43,961 nt of DNA. Source: Bacteroidales bacterium. Lineage in GTDB: Bacteria > Bacteroidota > Bacteroidia > Bacteroidales > UBA932. The position numbers and the translations under genes were made by a program. The notes beneath the pieces are model-generated. The model did not search any database. It worked only from the letters and a program-made list of their open reading frames with translations, and was not told where the DNA came from. Below, one piece after another: positions 33,271 to 43,961 of this stretch (its first letter is position 1; each line of letters opens with the position of its first letter). The stretch spans positions 1 to 43,961 of the forward strand of contig JAFUVY010000017.1 in assembly GCA_017477335.1 (NCBI GenBank), read 5' to 3'.

Positions 33271-33975
33271 CTACTTGGAAATAAGTTCCGTGAACCGTTG
33301 CATCCCCTTGGTTGCAACGGTTTTTATATGTGTGATGCGGCGGTCGCTTACGGGAACGTCGGCCGGGTCTATAATGTAGATCGGGGCCGATTCGGGGGCG
33401 TAGCGGTAAAGCCCGGCGGCGGGGTACACTTGGAGGGATGTGCCGACGATGAGGAGGATATCGGCCCGGGAAACCAGGTCTATGGCACGCTCTATTGCGG
33501 GGACGGCCTCCTCAAAGAATACGATGTGGGGCCTGAGCTGGCGGCCGTTGGGGGCAAGGTCTCCCAGGGAAACGCTGTCGTAGCCGATGTCAAAGACTTC
33601 TTCCTCGCTGCCTGTGATGTCATAAATGCCTTTTTCCGGACGCACTTTGGTGAGTTCTCCGTGGAGATGGAGGACCCTGGTGGATCCGGCCCGCTCGTGC
33701 AGATTGTCCACGTTCTGGGTGATTACGTCCACGGAATAATCCTTTTCCAGCGATGCTATGATTTCATGGGCGGCATTGGGCTTTGCGTCTTTAAGCTGGC
33801 GCCGACGCTCGTTGTAAAAGTCCAGGACCAGGCCTGGATTCCTTACCCAGCCGCTGTGGGAGGCCACATCCTCCACGTTGAACTGCTCCCAGAGCCCGCC
33901 GCTGTCACGGAATGTAGCGAAGCCGCTTTCTGCGCTTACGCCGGCTCCGGTAAGCACCACTATATGCTTTTTCAT
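33271..33975 (-). CDS. cobB: Sir2-family NAD-dependent deacylase
   Basis: This 234-residue sirtuin removes acyl groups from lysines with NAD+. VLTGAGVSAESGFATFRDSG (near residues 7-26) is the NAD site, and TQNVDNLHERAG (near 97) and LHLHGEL (near 113) give the catalytic histidine. The four zinc cysteines seen in many sirtuins are absent, as in class III-like bacterial CobB. It overlaps the lipoprotein gene by 4 bases. Its 3' end contains the rnf operon terminator. Confidence 0.9.
   Translation of the reverse strand: MKKHIVVLTGAGVSAESGFATFRDSGGLWEQFNVEDVASHSGWVRNPGLVLDFYNERRRQLKDAKPNAAHEIIASLEKDYSVDVITQNVDNLHERAGSTRVLHLHGELTKVRPEKGIYDITGSEEEVFDIGYDSVSLGDLAPNGRQLRPHIVFFEEAVPAIERAIDLVSRADILLIVGTSLQVYPAAGLYRYAPESAPIYIIDPADVPVSDRRITHIKTVATKGMQRFTELISK
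33293..33327 (+). terminator. Terminator of the rnf operon, inside the sirtuin 3' end
   Basis: A perfect 10-bp stem AACCGTTGCA / TGCAACGGTT (33293-33302 with 33313-33322) and a T-run follow the rnfA stop by 25 bases. The hairpin encodes the last residues of the convergent sirtuin gene. Confidence 0.8.
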
Positions 33976-35186
33976 TTCAGTATCTTTTGAATTCTTTCAA
34001 GTTTTCCGTCAACCTTTTCCGGCTTGACTCCAAGCAGTTTGCAGAGCATGGGATATAGGTCCGTATTGTGGAAGGCGCTGTTTTCTCCTTCCGTATAGGG
34101 TGCCTCGTATCCGGTCTTGAAGTCAGGTCCAACTGCACGGAATGCCACCATCATGTCTATTTCCCTGGAGTCGAATCCATGTGCTCCATGGTTTTTCCCG
34201 GGAGCAAAATTGAACTGCCAGCCAAGTTCGGGGCTCACTATGATGTCTCCCAGTCTGTTGGAGGTGCCGTAGCAGAGTTCCTCGGGAACCTCTCCGTGTC
34301 TCCAGACGTTAAGGTGCTCCACGCCTGACAGTTTGTTGTACAGGCTGTCCGCATAGCCTTCCTTGGCCCAGATGCTTGTGGGAAGATTACCCACGATCCT
34401 CTCCACCCATTCCTGCGGAACCACGTCCTTCCAGCCGATAAACCTTTCGGGGGAGATCTCTTCCATACCGTGGTCGCCGGCAAGGATGAAGTTCACTTTG
34501 CTTCCGTGGGGAAGGGCCTTGATGCGGAGGTACAGGTTGTGCATGAGGGAGTCCATTTTCTCTGCCATGACTTTTGTCTCCGGGGAGATGGGGCCGTGAA
34601 CGTGCCCCTGATGGTCCGGTTCGTCAAAGTATGCCATCACAAGGCGGGGCCTTTCATCTTCCGGCAGGCTTAGCAAGCGGATCACCTCGTCGCAGCGCTG
34701 GGCAAAATTCCAATGCGGCTCCTCATTCCAGTTCCTGTAGTAGGTGGGGTACTCGCCCTTGATTGCGATGTCGGATCCCACCCAGTAAACCACTCCGCAC
34801 TTGACTCCCTGCTTCTGGGCGGTGATCCATATGGGTTCCCCAAGATAGTAGCGGGGGTCAAAGCGGGATTCGTTGTCCCTGATGCTGTAGCCATGCTGAG
34901 TGTCCGGGTTCCAGAAGGAGTTGTTTACCAGCCCGTGATGGTCCGGAACCAGCCCCGTTGCCATGGTATAGTGGTTGGGGAAGGTGGAAGAGGGGAAAGA
35001 CGGCTCCATCCTGGCCTTTACGCCAACAGTGGCAAGCGAGTCAAAAAACGGCATCTCATAGTACTCCGGATAGTCCCATCGGTTCCCGTCCAGAGATATA
35101 ATGACAGTGTAGTTCTCCGACTTGCATCCTGAGAGGCAGACCGTTGCAGCCGCCGTGGCCACAACCCATAAGACAAACTTTCGCAT
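33972..35186 (-). CDS. Alkaline phosphatase superfamily phosphodiesterase/pyrophosphatase lipoprotein
   Basis: This 404-residue protein has a lipoprotein signal (residues 1-20, LSGC) and an NPP-type catalytic core. SLDGNRWDYP (near 31) gives the first metal ligand, SSTFPNHYTMATGLVPDHHG (near 65-84) the threonine nucleophile, and LAGDHGMEEIS (near 235) and NHGAHGFDS the other metal ligands. This is like ectonucleotide pyrophosphatase/phosphodiesterases, acting on nucleotide or lipid phosphodiesters outside the inner membrane. I chose ATG 35186, as the lipobox follows directly; the longer in-frame reading up to 35309 runs into a repeat. Confidence 0.88.
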   Translation of the reverse strand: MRKFVLWVVATAAATVCLSGCKSENYTVIISLDGNRWDYPEYYEMPFFDSLATVGVKARMEPSFPSSTFPNHYTMATGLVPDHHGLVNNSFWNPDTQHGYSIRDNESRFDPRYYLGEPIWITAQKQGVKCGVVYWVGSDIAIKGEYPTYYRNWNEEPHWNFAQRCDEVIRLLSLPEDERPRLVMAYFDEPDHQGHVHGPISPETKVMAEKMDSLMHNLYLRIKALPHGSKVNFILAGDHGMEEISPERFIGWKDVVPQEWVERIVGNLPTSIWAKEGYADSLYNKLSGVEHLNVWRHGEVPEELCYGTSNRLGDIIVSPELGWQFNFAPGKNHGAHGFDSREIDMMVAFRAVGPDFKTGYEAPYTEGENSAFHNTDLYPMLCKLLGVKPEKVDGKLERIQKILK

Positions 35187-35206
35187 ATTCGTTTTTATTT
35201 CTCCTG

Positions 35207-37102: not shown

Positions 37103-37179
37103 GGTTCCGTAGCTCAGTTGGATAGAGCAACAGCCTTCTAAGCTGTGGGTCTTGGGTTCGAATCCCAACGGGACTACCA
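37103..37179 (+). tRNA. tRNA-Arg (anticodon TCT)
   Basis: This folds as a standard cloverleaf with CCA encoded. The acceptor pairs GGTTCCG with CGGGACT, including G-U pairs at the end and one inside. The anticodon stem ACAGC/GCTGT encloses CTTCTAA, giving anticodon TCT. The T arm contains GGGTTCGAATCCC. The neighbouring tyrosine recombinase implies that its 3' end is the attachment site of the element. Confidence 0.96.
37155..37179 (+). other. Probable attL core (3' end of tRNA-Arg)
   Basis: Tyrosine recombinases next to a tRNA usually use its T arm and 3' end as the crossover site. The second copy, attR, is not in the window, so the element runs past 43961. This is inferred from context. 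Confidence 0.5.
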
Positions 37180-37193
37180 ATTTAAGGAAAGCG

Positions 37194-37308
37194 CTGGCCG
37201 TCAGCTTCTTACGACGGCCAGCCGACTTCCAACCAGAGGTCATTATCCTCAAAAAAAACCGAAATAATGTCCATTTTCGTCCATTTTTGTCCAATTACGG
37301 CCAAAAAG
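37194..37308 (+). repeat. attL-flanking hairpin and four 10-base phased repeats
   Basis: A 9-bp inverted repeat CTGGCCGTC / GACGGCCAG (37194-37221) is followed by repeats spaced exactly 10 bases apart starting at 37269: GTCCATTTTC, GTCCATTTTT, GTCCAATTAC and GGCCAAAAAG. Phased sites between a tRNA and an integrase are typical of arm-type integrase or excisionase binding. Confidence 0.5.
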
Positions 37309-37340
37309 ACGTGCAAGTTTCGGTGCAATTTTTCAAGGAT

Positions 37341-38600
37341 ATGGCCGTATCATTTTACCTCGACACCAGAGCTTGCCAGAAAGGGAAGCCCGCGCCCCTG
37401 AAGGTCGCCATCCGGCGCAAGGGAACAACATCATTCATTCCCACAGAAATCAAGGTCCTGCCTGACGATTGGGACCCGGCCCGCCAGCAGGTCAAGGCCA
37501 CCAACACCAACGCCAAGCGTATAAACGTCATCCTGAACAAAAAACGCCTCGACGTTGAGACGGCCATCCTCCGGCTCATGGAAGCCCAGGAGCTGACCGG
37601 CCTCAACGCGGCCCAGCTCCGCGAGAAGGTGACGGCGCTCATCGACCCGGACGCTGCCAAGAGAGCTGCGGAAGCCCGGCTCTTCCTGGCACGGTTCAAG
37701 CGCTTCATGGAGCTGAAGGATAACGACGGCACCAAGGGCCTGTATGCGTTCACGCTCCGCAAGATGGAGGCGTTCGACAAGAAGCTGCACCTGTACACCT
37801 TCGAGGACATCACCCGAGACTGGCTCCAGAACTTCGAGAAGCACCTCTCCAAGACCGAAGCGAAGAATACCCGCAACATCCACCTGCGGAATATCCGGGC
37901 CGTGTTCAACGACGCGATAGATTCTGGCATCACCACCTGCTATCCCTTCAGGAAGTTTACCGTGAGACCGGAAGCGACGAAGAAGAAGGCCCTGACGGCG
38001 GACCGGCTGCACGACCTCGCCACCCGGACCTGCGAGCCCTACCAAGTCCAGTACCGCGACTTGTTCCTGCTGATGTTCATGCTCCGGGGCATCAACATCG
38101 GCGACATGCTCAAGCTCAAGAAATCCGATATCAGGGACGGTCGCCTGGACTACCGGCGCTCCAAGGTGGGCACGCTGTTCTCCGTCAAGATAGAGCCGGA
38201 GGCGCAGGCCATCATCGACCGCTACAGGGGTAAAAAATACCTCCTGAATCCGCTCGATACATACAAGAACTATCGAGACTACCTCCACCACCTCAACGAC
38301 GCGCTGAAGGCCATAGGAAGGACCGTAGGGAAGCACGGCAAGGCCGAGGACGACGGCAAGTTTCCTGGGCTGTCCTCAAACTGGGCCCGACATACCTGGG
38401 CCACGGTCGCCTCGTACATCGACATTCCCAAGGAGGTAGTGAGCAAGGCGCTGGGGCACGGCATCGGCCTGACGGTGACAGATATCTACATTGATTTCGA
38501 CAGCTCCAAGGTGGACGAAGCGAACCGGCGCATCATCGACTTCATCCTGTATGGGAAAGATTACCGCAAGAATAGAGATATAAATAAACCTTCGGAATAG
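37341..38600 (+). CDS. Tyrosine recombinase (phage integrase)
   Basis: This 419-residue recombinase would insert and excise the element at tRNA-Arg. An arm-binding N-terminus (AVSFYLDTRACQKGKPAPLK) is followed by a SAM-like core domain (about 110-215) and the catalytic domain. Visible active-site residues are Arg249 (MLRGINIGDML), a lysine near 275, Arg350 in NWARHTW, His373 in LGHG and Tyr383 in TDIYID. The first position of the HxxR box is Asn, which is within the variation of Bacteroidota integrases. I chose ATG 37341; an in-frame reading back into the tRNA at 37152 cannot be the start. Confidence 0.92.
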   Translation: MAVSFYLDTRACQKGKPAPLKVAIRRKGTTSFIPTEIKVLPDDWDPARQQVKATNTNAKRINVILNKKRLDVETAILRLMEAQELTGLNAAQLREKVTALIDPDAAKRAAEARLFLARFKRFMELKDNDGTKGLYAFTLRKMEAFDKKLHLYTFEDITRDWLQNFEKHLSKTEAKNTRNIHLRNIRAVFNDAIDSGITTCYPFRKFTVRPEATKKKALTADRLHDLATRTCEPYQVQYRDLFLLMFMLRGINIGDMLKLKKSDIRDGRLDYRRSKVGTLFSVKIEPEAQAIIDRYRGKKYLLNPLDTYKNYRDYLHHLNDALKAIGRTVGKHGKAEDDGKFPGLSSNWARHTWATVASYIDIPKEVVSKALGHGIGLTVTDIYIDFDSSKVDEANRRIIDFILYGKDYRKNRDINKPSE

Positions 38601-39215: not shown

Positions 39216-39518
39216 CTAAACGAAGATTACCTGCTGGCCATAGCCAATGGCAATCCAGACAAAGACCTGCACGACCAGTCCGCCGAGAACTGTCGCCAGA
39301 AGGTCTATCCAATCGAAATTGCCGTCCTGCCAAACGTCGATAAACTCCTTGATGAAGGCCAGGAAGAGAACAGGCCAGATGCAGACGTACATCTTCAGTA
39401 TGATGAGGCAGAATGCAGCTGCAATCATGCCTGCGATGAAGTGATAGAGCCGGTCCCTGCGAATCTTGTTCAGGATGCCGACCAGCCAATTCCAGATTTT
39501 GTAGATGAACTGTTTCAT
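39216..39518 (-). CDS. Small phage membrane protein
   Basis: This 100-residue protein has three likely membrane segments (near residues 29-43, 44-60 and 72-97). A basic N-terminal helix (WLVGILNKIRRDRLYHFIAG) precedes them, and KEFIDVWQDGNFDWIDLLATVLGG lies between the second and third. It is last in the lysis-type operon. A holin-like or spanin-like role is possible but not shown. I do not recognise the family with confidence. Confidence 0.55.
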   Translation of the reverse strand: MKQFIYKIWNWLVGILNKIRRDRLYHFIAGMIAAAFCLIILKMYVCIWPVLFLAFIKEFIDVWQDGNFDWIDLLATVLGGLVVQVFVWIAIGYGQQVIFV

Positions 39519-39523
39519 ACTCT

Positions 39524-40195
39524 TTACTTTTGGATGATGTTGAACTTGATTTTTGCACCCCCGTAGAATCCCCGCGAGAGCTGATTGTTAGCATAGATAA
39601 AGGCATATCCCGCCTCTGGAACAAATCGCCAGCGACCGTTTGCACTGATTGAAATATCCGCTCCGATTCCGGCCATGGCACCAACAGCTCCAGCTCCGGC
39701 GAAAACTCCGGCCGTCGGGTACAGGGTCCAGCGGTAAGGCCGGTATTCCACTTGCGGAATGTAGGCTGTCTTCGGGAAAGATTTATGCCAGAGTAAGGAT
39801 ACATTATAGCCGTTCACCGCGAACTCGTAGGTATCGTGGTCAGTGAACGTGAAATCGGACATAGGGACGGCAATGTGGGTTGTGTCGCCAATATCCACAA
39901 GCGCCGGAATGCGATTGAGGCTGTCGCGATACAGGGCCACAAGGCCCTCATAGGATTTCAGGCGCTCTTTGGTACCGGCCACTACCAACTCATAGCCCTT
40001 CGGAATCGTCGTTTTCTCCCCGCTGGTCGTTGTCACTGTGTCCCGGACCCAAACCGTATCTTTCTGGGGCAAAGCGCTGGCCCCGCCTTTCATGGCCCTT
40101 CTTGAGCCAAGGAAGAAACCGCCGAGGAACAGCGCCAGGCAAATGATGCCGAACGCTGCTCCAAGGACGATTCTTTCTATCCGCTGCGTTACCAT
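39524..40195 (-). CDS. Hypothetical phage membrane-anchored protein
   Basis: This 223-residue protein has one N-terminal membrane helix (about residues 10-30), then VWVRDTVTTT, IPKGYELV, a coiled segment, and a C-terminal beta-rich part (YRPYRWTLYPTAGVFAGAG, RWRFVPEAGYAFIY) with a barrel-like strand pattern. Similar proteins with a TVxVRDT stretch are found near phage lysis genes in Bacteroidota. A role in outer-membrane disruption (spanin-like) is a guess. It overlaps the endolysin gene by 7 bases. Confidence 0.5.
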   Translation of the reverse strand: MVTQRIERIVLGAAFGIICLALFLGGFFLGSRRAMKGGASALPQKDTVWVRDTVTTTSGEKTTIPKGYELVVAGTKERLKSYEGLVALYRDSLNRIPALVDIGDTTHIAVPMSDFTFTDHDTYEFAVNGYNVSLLWHKSFPKTAYIPQVEYRPYRWTLYPTAGVFAGAGAVGAMAGIGADISISANGRWRFVPEAGYAFIYANNQLSRGFYGGAKIKFNIIQK

Positions 40196-40752
40196 ACGAT
40201 TTCACTGCCATCGGCTTTATAAAGGCGGTCGTAATGGAATCCTTCCCATTTACGGAGCCAGCCGTCAAGGTACTTTGCGTTATTCCGCTTCTGGGCTGCG
40301 GTGAGGTACTGCATCCCGCGCTCGGCCTTGATGTGGTTGAAGACGAAGCGATAACCGTAAAGCCTGTGGCTCTTGTTGAGGGCAGCAAGCGTCACGGAGC
40401 CCACCACGCCATCAGCCTTGAGGCCGAGGGCCTTTTGAACGGCCTTGATACCGCTAATGACACCGGCTCCCCATCCCCAATTAACGCAGATATTCGCCAC
40501 GGCCTGGGACTTGATTTCGTCGGCCCTCCACGGGTCCCAATACATGGTCTTGAAGATGTCCCACCACTCCGCATCGGTCAATTTCTTGAGGTCCTCGACC
40601 GTCGGGGCCTTTCGGCCCTTCAGCTTGCAATAGGATGTGTAGGTCCCGATGGTGATGCCGCGCATGGTTGCGCCGCCAGCATCGTCGGGGTCGTTGACGA
40701 AACCGCCCTCCCAGCTACGAAGAGCGGTCCCCAGAATCTTGAAATCAGCCAT
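40189..40752 (-). CDS. GH108-family endolysin with peptidoglycan-binding C-terminus
   Basis: This 187-residue muramidase would cut the cell wall at lysis. SWEGGFVNDPDDAGGATMRGIT (residues 13-34) is the GH108 signature, and Glu15 is the expected catalytic acid. A WWDIFKTMYWDPWRADEI stretch near 83 and a KADGVVGSVTLAALN (near 133) peptidoglycan-binding segment follow. It overlaps the holin gene by 8 bases. The absence of a signal peptide fits release through the holin. Confidence 0.9.
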   Translation of the reverse strand: MADFKILGTALRSWEGGFVNDPDDAGGATMRGITIGTYTSYCKLKGRKAPTVEDLKKLTDAEWWDIFKTMYWDPWRADEIKSQAVANICVNWGWGAGVISGIKAVQKALGLKADGVVGSVTLAALNKSHRLYGYRFVFNHIKAERGMQYLTAAQKRNNAKYLDGWLRKWEGFHYDRLYKADGSEIVW

Positions 40753-41227
40753 TTTCTTCCGGTTTTACTTGGTTACGTTCGAGAATCTTTTCAAGAATAT
40801 CCTTGAAATCATCTTTGTTGAGCATCTGGGTAAGAATCTCAACAGCTTCGCGCTGGTGCTTCTTTGTTTTTTCGTCGGCCTTTTCCCGCACGGACATGAA
40901 CTCCACGACGAGAAGGAACAGTCCGACAACCAGTGCAAAGACAGGGACGCCTACAAGGATTTCAAGGTGAATGAGAGCAAAGAACCGGCTGAAATAGACA
41001 ATGACATCGGCCATCGTCGCAATCATCAGGCCTCCTTCGTAGGAAATAAACTTCGTGAGTGAGCGACGTAGAGCTTCGCTCCGGCGAGCCTCACCCCTGA
41101 GCTTTGCTTTGTAAAGACCAGCTCCGAGGTCAATGCTCATGGCCAGAAGTACAAAAAACATAACCAGGACGGAAATCAGTAACATTCCACTGGCATTGTT
41201 AAGCAGAGATTCCATGATAGTGCGCAT
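40745..41227 (-). CDS. Phage holin-like protein
   Basis: This 160-residue protein has membrane segments near residues 14-36, 65-82 and 90-112, an amphipathic basic linker (KAKLRGEARRSEALRRSLTK) and a charged helical tail. The layout and the adjacent endolysin fit a Bacteroidota phage holin family. ATG 41215 is an alternative start. Confidence 0.8.
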   Translation of the reverse strand: MRTIMESLLNNASGMLLISVLVMFFVLLAMSIDLGAGLYKAKLRGEARRSEALRRSLTKFISYEGGLMIATMADVIVYFSRFFALIHLEILVGVPVFALVVGLFLLVVEFMSVREKADEKTKKHQREAVEILTQMLNKDDFKDILEKILERNQVKPEENG

Positions 41228-41241
41228 TTTTGTTCCGCCGA

Positions 41242-41655
41242 TTAGGATTCAACTTCTTCCGCAAGAAGAGCATCCGCAATGTCCTTGCAGGCTTCGGCGA
41301 AGTCATTGTAAGAATTGAACTCGGCCACCTTTGTGTCGCGCTGGCGCTGGATGGCCAGCTCGTCATCAATGGTAAGGCCCGGCGCGCTCACGTCTTCGCC
41401 GTCCTTGGTATAGTCGGCTCCATGCCGAATAATGGCGGTGATGAGGCTGTCGCGCGTCACTTCTCCTGCAACGTCAGCATAGCGGGCGTTCCAGGTAGGG
41501 AGGATTTCGGGGTCACCTTCGCTGCCGTCCTCTTTCTGGGTAGGATTGACAAAAGGTTCACCCTCTTTGACATTGTAGTAGAAGCGAGTTCCACCGTTGG
41601 GGAGTTTCTCGCACTTTGGCGGCTGTGCGCCCATGAATTTTACTTTGTTGTTCAT
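41242..41655 (-). CDS. Hypothetical phage protein coupled to the reverse transcriptase
   Basis: This 137-residue soluble acidic protein has no motif I recognise. The middle is LPTWNARYADVAGEVTRDSLITAIIRHG (key WNARYADV), and a helical end (FNSYNDFAEACKDIADALLAEE). Its ATG overlaps the RT stop as ATGA, so it is translated with RT. It could be a tail-fibre accessory protein, but nothing in the sequence shows it. Confidence 0.6.
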   Translation of the reverse strand: MNNKVKFMGAQPPKCEKLPNGGTRFYYNVKEGEPFVNPTQKEDGSEGDPEILPTWNARYADVAGEVTRDSLITAIIRHGADYTKDGEDVSAPGLTIDDELAIQRQRDTKVAEFNSYNDFAEACKDIADALLAEEVES

Positions 41656-43214
41656 ACAAATAATGGTTTGAAAGTTGCTTTTGTATATTCCTGATTGAAG
41701 TCAAAGACGTAGCGAACCGGCGAAGCACGAAGCGTCCTGTCAAGCATCTTCCACTCATTGAAGTGGCTGAAATACCCGAGGTAGGAGTTGAACGTGGAGT
41801 GCCAGCCGTTGAAATCGACGTCCGGCCACCTGGCCATGCCCATTTCGCAGCCAGCCACGAAACGGTGGAACCGTGCCACGGTCTTGTTATCAGCGTAGCG
41901 CCGGAAGGGCTTGATGGCCGCTCCAAGGAAGCCGTTCGTGTCCCGGGTGGAGGTGATGGTAGTCTTATTGGGGTGGAGCGTCAGCTGGAGCCGTTCTTTC
42001 AGGAACTGCGCCGATGCCAACTTCACTTCCTCAAGGAAAGCATAGTCCCTGCTCAAGATTCGGCCATCGTCAACATATCGGTTGGTGTAGCGGCAATGGA
42101 GTTCCCGCTTCAAGTATTGGTCGAAGGGATTCAGGTAGATATTGCTGTAGAGCTGGCTCATAACGTCGCCGATGGTCAAGCCCACGCCCGGCGGCATGTT
42201 GAACATGCTCTTGTTGGCCGGTAGCGGGTCCCAATCGGACGGGGAGCCGAGAATGGTGCAGTTCTTCACCGGGTCGCGGAAAAGCTGCGCCCGCAGGAGG
42301 AAATCAACAAGGTCGAAATCAATGATATCTTCCCAGCGTTCGTGACTTCCCCTGTGCGTCCAGTCGTGGCGGCGCTTCTCTATCTCCGAATGGATATAGT
42401 CATAGAGAATCTCTTTGACTATGTGCATAAAGTAGCCGGAGATATCGAGGTTGAGGATGAAAGCCTCATACCTGTAGTTGTCGGTGACGCTCCTGATGTT
42501 ATGTTCAAATCGGTCTATACCCACCAGAGTACCTTTTCCGAGGCGGCAGGAATAGGTGTCATAGACGAACGTCCGTTCAAAGAACGGGTACAGCATCCCA
42601 AACAGGAGGTGGCTCACAACGCGGTCACGAAACCTCGGTGCGAAAACCTCCCTAACTGTCGGCTCGGTGATGATGAAGCATTCTGGCGGCAGTACCACGT
42701 AAGTGCGGTTCCATATCTCATCTGTGAGGACGTTTATCTTGCGCTCCGATTCAATCTCAAAGCGCAGCTGGGAGGTCTTGTTACGCTCGTTCTTTCTGGC
42801 CTCCAGATAAGCGTCGGTCAGCAGCTCATGGAGCCTGGCCTTTGTTAGTTGCACGTCTGAATAAAAAAAGCGGAAGGAATGACGATGTATAAATGCTTGG
42901 ACGGGGCGCACGCTGAACCCGTTAGCGCGGTTGTTGTTGTTGAGCGGGTTAACGTTGCCGGAATTGAAGTTCAGGTTGCGGCCATTGGAAGGGCTGTTCG
43001 GACCGGCAACCCAGAAGTTGCCGTTGCTGCCGACATTGTTGAACGCCCCAGAACCGTTGTTGCGGTAGCCGCCTGCGGCCCCTGAAAGGAAGGAAGGTAG
43101 TGCTCCGTTGCTGAACATCGTAGCGGATGGCACTCCAAACGCAGCGATGGACTGTACTGACAGCATTGCCGCCGCCAGCACATTTATTACCCTATGAAGA
43201 AACGATTTCCGCAT
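41652..43214 (-). CDS. DGR reverse transcriptase with in-frame template repeat at its N-terminus
   Basis: This 520-residue reading frame ends in a reverse transcriptase of the DGR type. LNLDISGYF (residues 255-262, motif A), LTIGDVMSQ (346-354, the SQ typical of DGR enzymes) and YVDD (380-383, catalytic) are all intact. The enzyme copies template-repeat RNA to an A-mutagenised cDNA that replaces the variable repeat. Residues 1-45 look like a signal peptide plus linker, odd for a cytoplasmic RT. Residues about 49-106 are the translated template repeat. No ATG lies between the repeat and residue 207, so either the repeat is translated or a non-ATG start is used (a GTG at 42854 is one candidate). 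Confidence 0.85.
   Translation of the reverse strand: MRKSFLHRVINVLAAAMLSVQSIAAFGVPSATMFSNGALPSFLSGAAGGYRNNGSGAFNNVGSNGNFWVAGPNSPSNGRNLNFNSGNVNPLNNNNRANGFSVRPVQAFIHRHSFRFFYSDVQLTKARLHELLTDAYLEARKNERNKTSQLRFEIESERKINVLTDEIWNRTYVVLPPECFIITEPTVREVFAPRFRDRVVSHLLFGMLYPFFERTFVYDTYSCRLGKGTLVGIDRFEHNIRSVTDNYRYEAFILNLDISGYFMHIVKEILYDYIHSEIEKRRHDWTHRGSHERWEDIIDFDLVDFLLRAQLFRDPVKNCTILGSPSDWDPLPANKSMFNMPPGVGLTIGDVMSQLYSNIYLNPFDQYLKRELHCRYTNRYVDDGRILSRDYAFLEEVKLASAQFLKERLQLTLHPNKTTITSTRDTNGFLGAAIKPFRRYADNKTVARFHRFVAGCEMGMARWPDVDFNGWHSTFNSYLGYFSHFNEWKMLDRTLRASPVRYVFDFNQEYTKATFKPLFV
42896..43070 (-). repeat. DGR template repeat (TR)
   Basis: This stretch, read on the minus strand, encodes an asparagine-rich C-type-lectin-like end (18 Asn codons, AAC or AAT) that finishes in RANGFSVRPVQ. 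AAY codons are the favoured sites for adenine mutagenesis. Its last 35 bases match the variable repeat at 43927-43961 with one difference, T at 42923 (A on the minus strand) against A at 43954 (T on the minus strand). The 5' limit is approximate, because the rest of the variable repeat lies outside the window. Confidence 0.85.
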
Positions 43215-43248
43215 ATCGGTGGAACACTGAATTTATAAATGCACGCCC

Positions 43249-43671
43249 TCAGTCCGTTACGACTTTACGCAGGACGGTAGAGGCTCTGGCGGTCATTACC
43301 TTCCGCTTGCCTGTAGTATCTTCGTCTCCGTATGGATTAGCCAACCAACCCTTCAGCTGGCTCTCAAGGTTCCCCTCGTAGCCGGAAATGGAATTAAGGC
43401 CCTTCTTCGTAATGTAGCGGAGGTCATACAGACACCGCACTTGAATCCGAATCCTCGAAAGCTTTTTCAGGGCGCTTTTGAGAAATTCTTCCCGCGTGCC
43501 GAAGTTCTCTTCGTTGGCATCTGCGATGTCCACCATAATATCCAGGGCGCTGTTTATCATTTCGGCGACCGTGGTATATTTCACGGTCCTGGGCACCTTC
43601 TGGGTGCTCTCGGAAAGTTGCTTAACAAGGTCCCGGGCCTTCTTATAGGATGGCAGCTGATGGTTTTCCAT
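43249..43671 (-). CDS. DGR accessory variability determinant (Avd-like)
   Basis: This 140-residue helical protein fits the Avd family, a pentameric four-helix bundle that binds the DGR reverse transcriptase and template RNA. LPSYKKARDLVKQLSEST (near residues 5-22), VPRTVKYTTVAEMINSALDI (near 26-45) and LSRIRIQVRCLYDLRYITKK (near 75-94) follow the usual helix pattern. It is positively charged, as expected. It sits between the target gene and the template/RT gene. Its start is one base after the stop of the 54-residue gene. Confidence 0.82.
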   Translation of the reverse strand: MENHQLPSYKKARDLVKQLSESTQKVPRTVKYTTVAEMINSALDIMVDIADANEENFGTREEFLKSALKKLSRIRIQVRCLYDLRYITKKGLNSISGYEGNLESQLKGWLANPYGDEDTTGKRKVMTARASTVLRKVVTD

Positions 43672-43672
43672 A

Positions 43673-43837
43673 CTATCGTTTCTTGGTAAGGATTCTCTTC
43701 AGCCGGGCCAGAAAGTGCATACAATCCACCGGCGTTGCGTTTGCAAGGTCGAACTGTTTCACAAGTTTTTCTGCGGGGCTGTTCTCGCCCACAATCACAA
43801 TGGAGTTTTTGATTTTGATGTTCACTTTCTGGTCCAT
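43673..43837 (-). CDS. 54-residue protein between DGR target and avd
   Basis: This short gene encodes MDQKVNIKIKNSIVIVGENS at the start and a basic helix (FLARLKRILTKKR) at the end. It has one predicted beta hairpin and one helix, and no recognised domain. It is packed into the DGR operon, with one base to avd. It could be a DGR accessory protein or a target chaperone; neither can be shown from the sequence. Confidence 0.5.
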   Translation of the reverse strand: MDQKVNIKIKNSIVIVGENSPAEKLVKQFDLANATPVDCMHFLARLKRILTKKR

Positions 43838-43874
43838 GCTAAAGAGGATTTTTTACGCACAAGGCCCTCCCGTC

Positions 43875-43902
43875 GGGCGCGGGCCTCAAGATGGCCGCGC
43901 CC
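43875..43902 (-). other. GC-rich hairpin downstream of the variable repeat
   Basis: GGGCGCGGCC and GGCCCGCGCCC pair with one bulge around a 7-base loop (43875-43885 with 43893-43902), starting 20 bases after the target-gene stop. DGRs such as that of phage BPP-1 need a hairpin just past the variable repeat for retargeting, so this may be that element. A transcription terminator is another reading, though no strong T-run follows. Confidence 0.5.
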
Positions 43903-43921
43903 CCTGGAAAGGATAAAAAGA

Positions 43922-43961
43922 TTATTCTTGGACGGGGCGCACGCTGAACCCGTAAGCGCGG
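43922..43961 (-). CDS. DGR target protein, 3' end only
   Basis: Only the last 12 codons are inside the window, RAYGFSVRPVQE and then TAA. They match the end of the template repeat except for Tyr in place of Asn. The GFSVRPV ending is typical of C-type-lectin-like or FGE-like DGR targets, such as phage tail or surface proteins. The rest of the gene is outside the window. Confidence 0.75.
   Translation of the reverse strand, partial: RAYGFSVRPVQE
43927..43961 (-). repeat. DGR variable repeat (VR), 3' end
   Basis: The 35 visible bases equal the 3' end of the template repeat (42896-42930) apart from one position, which is an adenine in the template strand and a thymine here. The identical last 25 bases correspond to the initiation-of-mutagenic-homing region. 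Confidence 0.88.

What the first reader, a model, noticed from the sequence alone, without database searches (positions are those of the whole stretch)
42896..43961. A diversity-generating retroelement with adenine-specific mutation visible at the window edge
The variable repeat (43927-43961) and template repeat (42896-42930) match at 34 of 35 bases. The only mismatch is an A in the template strand changed to T in the target strand, which turns Asn (AAC) into Tyr (TAC). An Avd-like gene and a DGR-type reverse transcriptase (SQ and YVDD motifs) lie between or beside them. This is the diagnostic A-to-N signature, though with a single visible event.
Basis: partly seen in the sequence, partly recalled or inferred. 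Interest (0 to 1): 0.9.

Follow-up and report, generated by a model that had tools for sequence, protein, structure and literature searches.

The report
Prophage mutation cassette with MutS tail
A prophage in an uncultured gut bacterium carries a known kind of cassette that rewrites part of one gene at random, and beside it lies a tiny protein that resembles the clasp by which the mismatch-repair protein MutS joins itself, so the cassette may have a link to DNA repair.

Summary
In detail: 43927-43961 and 42896-42930 match at 34 of 35 bases, the one difference being a template A read as T. One event at 1 of 5 template adenines does not show adenine specificity by itself. The rest of the cassette does: a DGR-type RT, an Avd, and relatives (RTs 23-43% identical) whose repeats differ at template A (552 of 1408) far more than at C, G or T. 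It is a diversity-generating retroelement, beside a lysis cassette and an integrase at a tRNA-Arg in an uncultured Bacteroidales genome. The contig ends inside the target's variable repeat, so the target is not seen.

The new part is a 54-residue ORF between target and avd (43673-43837). It matches the C-terminal end of Msl, a known MutS-like DGR accessory, without Msl's MutS domain I. That end matches the extreme C-terminus of chromosomal MutS, the tetramerisation tail. I read it as a stand-alone MutS-tail accessory, possibly a handle on host MutS. The homology is well supported; the function is inferred, and a non-working leftover is not excluded. Verdict: a new variant of a known kind.

The parts
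43922..43961 (-). 3' end of the target gene (RAYGFSVRPVQE, stop at 43922-43924); the visible VR is 43927-43961; the rest is off the contig
43875..43902 (-). GC-rich hairpin 24 nt past the VR, possible target-site hairpin; loop 7 nt, not the 4-nt GRNA loop reported for phage DGRs
   Evidence: 25 of 200 shuffles of the stretch fold as well, z -1.29; comparison with PMC3240598 passages
43673..43837 (-). 54-residue ORF, homologous to the C-terminal module of Msl and to the MutS tetramerisation tail; its stop lies one base before the avd ATG
43249..43671 (-). Avd (140 residues)
   Evidence: phrog_3206 6e-15; NF033474 7e-11, below its cut-off; PF05635 above its cut-off, bAvd below
42896..43082 (-). 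template repeat; the 42896 end is fixed by the match to the VR, the 43082 end is inferred from relatives' TRs
41652..42854 (-). DGR reverse transcriptase, likely start GTG 42854; the same frame is open up to ATG 43214 through the TR
41242..41655 (-). ORF of 137 residues overlapping the RT stop, no family above cut-off
39216..41227 (-). phage lysis region: holin-like (40745-41227), GH108 lysozyme (40189-40752), DUF6808 protein (39524-40195), small ORF (39216-39518)
37152..38600 (+). tyrosine integrase; the ORF overlaps the tRNA, so the real start is probably later
37103..37179 (+). tRNA-Arg, likely attachment site

Best explanation
A prophage-borne, BPP-1-type diversity-generating retroelement cut by the contig end, with one extra part. 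Shown: template and variable repeat, RT and Avd are present in BPP-1 order, and relatives' repeats differ mainly at template adenines. Inferred from BPP-1: the RT-Avd complex copies the template RNA, misreads its adenines, and the cDNA replaces the 3' end of the target gene, probably with a C-type-lectin-like variable end. Shown by sequence: the 54-residue ORF between target and avd is the C-terminal module of the accessory Msl without its MutS domain I, and that module is homologous to the C-terminal tail of MutS, which in E. coli is the tetramerisation domain. Inferred: it is a made protein that oligomerises, either to hold the Avd-RT complex together (about 0.4) or to bind host MutS through its tail and so blunt or steer mismatch repair of the A-mismatched heteroduplex (about 0.3). 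A non-working leftover of msl is the remaining option (about 0.3).
For: Repeat and A-to-T change. RT: 8ub7 5e-21, next hit a maturase 9e-07 (8ub7 recalled as the BPP-1 DGR RT), phrog_1423 1.5e-74. Avd. Relatives: 29 of 38 loci gave a repeat pair without base filter, 23 of 29 with at least 0.80 of mismatches at template A. Tail: a profile of MutS tails only ranks the window ORF third of 25,176 six-frame ORFs, E 5e-4; a profile of Msl tails without the window finds it at 7e-10; hhalign of Msl tails against MutS tails 96.6%, 0 of 300 permuted decoys as good, window alone 81.7% and 0 of 300. Position: where full Msl stands in relatives, just before avd. Model: helix, turn, helix with mean pLDDT 93-97 over residues 21-50. 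L269 has a similar tail-only ORF before avd; L030 fuses the MutS_I-like half to Avd.
Against: Only one variable site is seen; the target and the other attachment site are not in the assembly. Pair by pair the window ORF and the host's own MutS tail are only weakly alike: 22 of 2000 shuffles score as well against the tail, 79 of 500 against the whole MutS part. The tail profiles do not find a MutS entry in the PDB, and the structure comparison of the 54-residue model listed no MutS. Pfam, PHROGs and NCBIfam give nothing for the ORF. Six of the 29 unfiltered repeat pairs are not A-biased. No binding or expression data.
Confidence: 0.85

Rival explanations
1. An ordinary DGR in which msl has decayed: a deletion removed MutS domain I and the 54-residue ORF is a non-working leftover, kept open perhaps because its end overlaps the avd start region.
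For: Full Msl stands in this place in relatives; in L268 the two halves are split by an in-frame stop; L269's contig starts 85 nt before its tail ORF, so its lack of domain I is less sure.
Against: The ORF is intact from ATG to stop and keeps the consensus of the module; against L030's tail the differences over 36 codons are 16, 10 and 24 at codon positions 1, 2 and 3, which suggests selection on the protein but includes L030's own branch; the tail-only form recurs in L269.
Confidence: 0.3
2. The resemblance to the MutS tail is a chance likeness of short helical segments.
For: The module is about 35 residues, and the pair-wise score with the host's own tail is weak.
Against: Independent profiles agree in both directions; 0 of 300 decoys in each test, reversed profile 0.3%, Msl N-part 0.1%; in full Msl the module is joined to a MutS-domain-I-like half.
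Confidence: 0.07
3. The template is translated as the N-terminal part of the RT, starting at ATG 43214, so the RT is a template-RT fusion with a signal-peptide-like start.
For: The frame 41652-43214 is open, and no ATG lies in frame between template and RT; L060 and L061 also run through the template without an ATG after it.
Against: A GTG at 42854 stands where relatives' RTs begin, and a TTG stands there in L060 and L061; the part before the template is not alike in the other loci shown; a template in the target's frame is open by design and falls in the RT frame one time in three.
Confidence: 0.1
4. A degenerate, inactive DGR in a defective prophage.
For: The target and the rest of the phage are not in the assembly; one variable site is seen.
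Against: RT with SQ and YVDD, Avd, template and VR end are open; the contig breaks just before the stretch that in the template reads four AAC codons, which would fit a mixed VR in the population (inference).
Confidence: 0.1

Closest known systems
Bordetella phage BPP-1 DGR (mtd, avd, TR, brt)
   Same: Order target-VR, avd, TR, RT; Avd; RT with DGR motifs; a hairpin past the VR (BPP-1 features from PMC6642488, PMC3240598 and PMC12875486 passages)
   Different: A 54-residue MutS-tail ORF stands between target and avd; the hairpin loop is not GRNA; the spacer between TR and RT is short and the RT frame runs through the TR
DGR of Bacteroides phages Bacuni F1, F2 and F4 (PMC8143477, passages seen)
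   Same: Bacteroidales phage DGR with Avd and TR beside the RT; RTs 32-35% identical; targets with DUF1566 or Fib_succ_major
   Different: No match to the 54-residue ORF or to two Msl queries in 50,697 phage records at the limits used
MSL (MutS-like) accessory of DGRs, PF01624 (PMC10053308, passages seen)
   Same: Same place before avd; the same C-terminal module, by profile
   Different: The window's form lacks the MutS-domain-I half
MutS C-terminal tetramerisation domain (PDB 2OK2, 3ZLJ chain C)
   Same: About 50 residues; aligned TP motif, Pro36 at the place of E. coli Pro839; predicted helix-turn-helix
   Different: Free-standing, inside a phage mutagenesis cassette; oligomerisation not tested

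Membership tests
Diversity-generating retroelement | RT of the DGR type | tested here: met
   phrog_1423 1.5e-74; 8ub7 5e-21, recalled as BPP-1 RT; SQ and YVDD read
Diversity-generating retroelement | Template and variable repeat, near-identical | tested here: met
   34 of 35 bases of the visible end
Diversity-generating retroelement | Mismatches at template adenines | tested here: inconclusive
   In the window one event, at an A; in relatives A 552/1408, C 66/1155, G 45/1098, T 72/1013 over 29 of 38 loci
Diversity-generating retroelement | Target gene with the VR at its 3' end | tested here: inconclusive
   12 codons and a stop are visible; the rest is off the contig
Diversity-generating retroelement | Avd accessory | tested here: met
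Diversity-generating retroelement | Activity (VR varies between copies, TR does not) | not testable with these tools
   No reads held
Msl (MutS-like DGR accessory) | MutS domain I (PF01624) | tested here: not met
   No match in the 54-residue ORF and only about 80 nt between it and the target's stop; 6 of 8 intact Msl of relatives scanned match at 0.2 to 4e-06, one above the cut-off
Msl (MutS-like DGR accessory) | C-terminal module and place before avd | tested here: met
MutS tetramerisation tail | Sequence homology to MutS C-termini | tested here: met
MutS tetramerisation tail | Forms dimers or tetramers, or joins MutS | not testable with these tools
   Needs protein work
MutS tetramerisation tail | Fold of 2OK2 / 3ZLJ | tested here: inconclusive
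Prophage | Integrase at a tRNA, phage genes, second attachment site | tested here: inconclusive
   Integrase, tRNA-Arg and lysis genes present; no second copy of the tRNA 3' end in the assembly; similarity in the genus ends within 7 bases of the tRNA 3' end

The most novel reading that the evidence does not exclude
The cassette encodes a free copy of the MutS oligomerisation tail that joins host MutS and locally disarms or steers mismatch repair, so that adenine-derived mismatches made during mutagenic homing survive. DGRs would then carry their own handle on the host's mutation-correcting machinery, and Msl (MutS domain I plus tail) would be the fuller form of the same device.
Probability: 0.25. 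Interest if true: 0.8.

Novelty: new variant of a known kind. Interest (0 to 1): 0.5.

Why it matters
How the mutated cDNA replaces the VR, and how its mismatches escape repair, is open: PMC12875486 (passages seen) calls the homing step incompletely understood and deleted mutS to help preserve DGR substitutions. A cassette with a stand-alone MutS tail next to Avd makes a link between DGRs and mismatch repair testable with one 54-residue protein, and gives the Msl accessory a second MutS-derived part that I did not find described.

Tried and rejected
Extending the target: contig C3 ends at 43961; template DNA and peptide searched in the whole genome matched only C3; 58 end stretches of the other 29 contigs gave no overlap of 8 bases or more with the contig end, and only weak matches to the template (best blastn E 0.11, best tblastn E 4.5). 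Close relatives in viral contigs by RT and by Avd: none; in genome contigs by RT: none. Viral contigs by the lysozyme gave 80 loci, useful for context.

Template-RT fusion protein: set aside as the likely product, see rival 3.

The Msl profile in a phylum-wide sample found, of 385 genomes at E up to 1e-05, only the window and one 903-residue ORF matched at the profile's C-terminal end. The tail profile in 295 genomes of the class matched 3 at E up to 1e-4: the window, L268's and L269's genomes.

Full report
What is there. The window is the whole contig C3 of an incomplete genome (952,737 bases, 30 contigs, completeness 60.26). A host gene (33975-35189) is nearest to uncultured Bacteroidales or Bacteroidia, best 82-83% identical; 7 of the 18 named loci are titled after goat, buffalo, deer or reindeer guts, so a ruminant host is likely, not shown. 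At 37103-37179 stands a tRNA-Arg, followed by a tyrosine integrase, and on the minus strand a lysis region (GH108 lysozyme, holin-like) and the cassette of this finding. In 54 of 60 other genomes of the genus the query 36150-37240 matches, mostly over the tRNA, and no match goes more than 7 bases past its 3' end. I take this as the edge of a prophage; a second attachment site was not found.

The observation. On the minus strand the contig end (43961-43927) matches the template at 42930-42896 at 34 of 35 bases; the difference is template A to T. The next-best 35-mer of the contig, both strands, matches 22 of 35. The template part has 5 A, so one event on an A would occur by chance about 0.14 of the time.

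Relatives. RT relatives were found in 14 of 61 near genomes at E up to 0.001 and in 23 of 393 of the order at E up to 1e-50, the window's own included in both. I fetched flanks of 38 loci; their RTs are 23-43% identical, 26 of 38 above 36%. With a filter for A-biased pairs, 28 of 38 loci have at least one. Without any base filter, taking the repeat nearest the RT, 29 of 38 gave a pair, 23 of the 29 with at least 0.80 of mismatches at template A; the other 6 (L067, L069, L073, L074, L076, L084) gave 0.21-0.40 and are other repeats or unclear. Pooled over all 29: A 552/1408, C 66/1155, G 45/1098, T 72/1013. For L069, L073, L074 and L084 another pair is A-biased. VR ends of some targets (GFSVRPVRQN in L061, NGFSVRCVQE in L029) resemble the visible RAYGFSVRPVQE. 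Of 6 such target ORFs scanned, 2 have fimbrillin-like and 4 protein-kinase domains, the 4 with an Lcl_C match near or below its cut-off and one fimbrillin-like with a weak Fib_succ_major match. The window's own target is unknown.

RT and Avd. The RT's best solved relative is 8ub7, listed only as 'Reverse transcriptase' and recalled as the BPP-1 DGR RT (5e-21; the next, a maturase, 9e-07); phrog_1423 1.5e-74. SQ and YVDD are read in the translation; the SQ motif as a mark of the DGR clade is discussed in PMC3521204 (passages seen). Avd: phrog_3206 6e-15, NF033474 7e-11 below its cut-off, PF05635 above its cut-off and bAvd below.

The tail is a MutS tail. A profile of seven C-terminal pieces (window included), searched in 393 genomes of the order, matched 28 at E up to 0.01. 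Of the 30 rows, 11 are ORFs whose match lies 0 to 3 residues from the C-terminus and which carry a MutS-like GPNM motif (four read in full); 13 are full Msl, one is the window, one the stand-alone ORF of L242/L261, and 4 are something else. In the reverse direction, a profile of MutS tails alone (12 tails, 11 distinct, the host's own included) searched against 25,176 six-frame ORFs of 125 fetched loci plus the window ranked the window ORF third (E 5e-4); all 17 ORFs down to E 2.9 are Msl C-termini, the window, the tail-only or split forms of L269 and L268, or L261. A profile of 14 Msl tails without the window finds the window ORF at 7e-10; of the 19 ORFs at E up to 1e-3, 14 are those it was built from, and the other five are L029's Msl, L268, L269, the window and L261. 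hhalign of 19 tails (window included) against 9 MutS tails gives 96.6%, E 5e-10; a rerun gives 96.1% with and without the window and 81.7% for the window alone, 0 of 300 column-permuted decoys as good in either test, 0.3% for the reversed profile and 0.1% for the Msl N-part. Against this: pair by pair the window ORF and the host's tail are weakly alike (22 of 2000 shuffles as good; 79 of 500 against the whole MutS part), and the tail profiles find no MutS entry in the PDB.

What that tail is. The isolated E. coli MutS tail is in the PDB as 2OK2 (a fusion) and 3ZLJ chain C, 53 residues. PMC4521584 (passages seen) states that MutS D835R variants do not form tetramers, and 6i5f is titled a P839E dimer mutant. 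Counting back from the E. coli end shown, Pro839 is the Pro of the TP motif; it aligns with Pro36 here, the only column with 90% or more identity in 19 sequences. The window model is a helix (21-28), a turn and a long helix (36-53), with mean pLDDT 93-97 over residues 21-50.

Domain arrangements. Of 71 fetched loci with an RT ORF (window included), 17 have an Msl part near the RT: 13 with both halves by profile; L081 with the N half by profile and the tail by the MutS-tail profile; L268 with the halves split by an in-frame stop; and two with the tail only, L269 and the window. Four of the 71 (L263, L264, L268, L269) were fetched because they matched the tail profile, and some viral loci are near-duplicates, so these are not frequencies. 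L269's contig begins 85 nt before its tail ORF frame, so its lack of domain I is less sure. In L030 the N half is fused to Avd (in-house profiles 2e-20 and 4e-10; Pfam saw neither), which ties Msl to the Avd-RT complex.

Mechanism. From BPP-1 (PMC12875486 and PMC3240598, passages seen): RT and Avd copy the template RNA, misread adenines, and the cDNA replaces the VR, aided by a hairpin past it. Here a GC-rich hairpin lies 24 nt past the VR (43875-43902), but it is not beyond shuffles and its loop is not GRNA. The tail has three readings: an oligomerising part of the Avd-RT complex (about 0.4), a handle on host MutS (about 0.3), or a remnant (about 0.3). The host has a MutS with the same kind of tail, and PMC12875486 deleted mutS to help preserve DGR substitutions; both make the second reading reasonable, neither shows it.

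In print. MSL as a MutS-domain-I accessory is known. I found no description of a MutS tail in it in the listings of searches or the passages opened; PMC8144416 holds none of the terms MutS, accessory, Msl or Avd. The main DGR survey (gkx1150, recalled) is not held, so this is not a claim that it is unpublished.

Verdict. The DGR itself is ordinary for Bacteroidales and their phages. The stand-alone MutS tail makes it a new variant.

Noticed in passing
window 41652-43214 (-): The RT frame is open upstream through the whole template to an ATG with a signal-peptide-like start; no ATG lies between template and RT (GTG at 42854). L060 and L061 also lack an ATG there and have a TTG.
   Followed up: partly
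L030:9797-10531 (-): An ORF that joins a MutS_I-like Msl half to an Avd half (in-house profiles 2e-20 and 4e-10; no Pfam match).
   Followed up: partly
A4 (16 Msl proteins), residue F26 of L067: Msl keeps an invariant Phe at the place that I take, from recall, for the mismatch-reading Phe of MutS (GxFxE), while the Glu two residues on is mostly a basic residue in the aligned Msl.
   Followed up: no
L261:5721-5852 (+): A free-standing 43-residue MutS-tail-like ORF near a contig end, with no RT found in the 5.9 kb contig.
   Followed up: partly
L060, L061: The two closest RT relatives each have two A-biased VRs, in genes that join a protein kinase to a variable end with an Lcl_C match.
   Followed up: partly
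L120 (IMGVR_UViG_3300012016_000280): A viral contig with the same lysis region (lysozyme 81% identical) but a distant DGR-like RT (22% identical): the lysis genes and the RT seem to have different histories.
   Followed up: partly
window 43961: The contig ends in the VR just before the stretch that in the template reads four AAC codons, as if the assembly broke on a mixed VR (inference).
   Followed up: no
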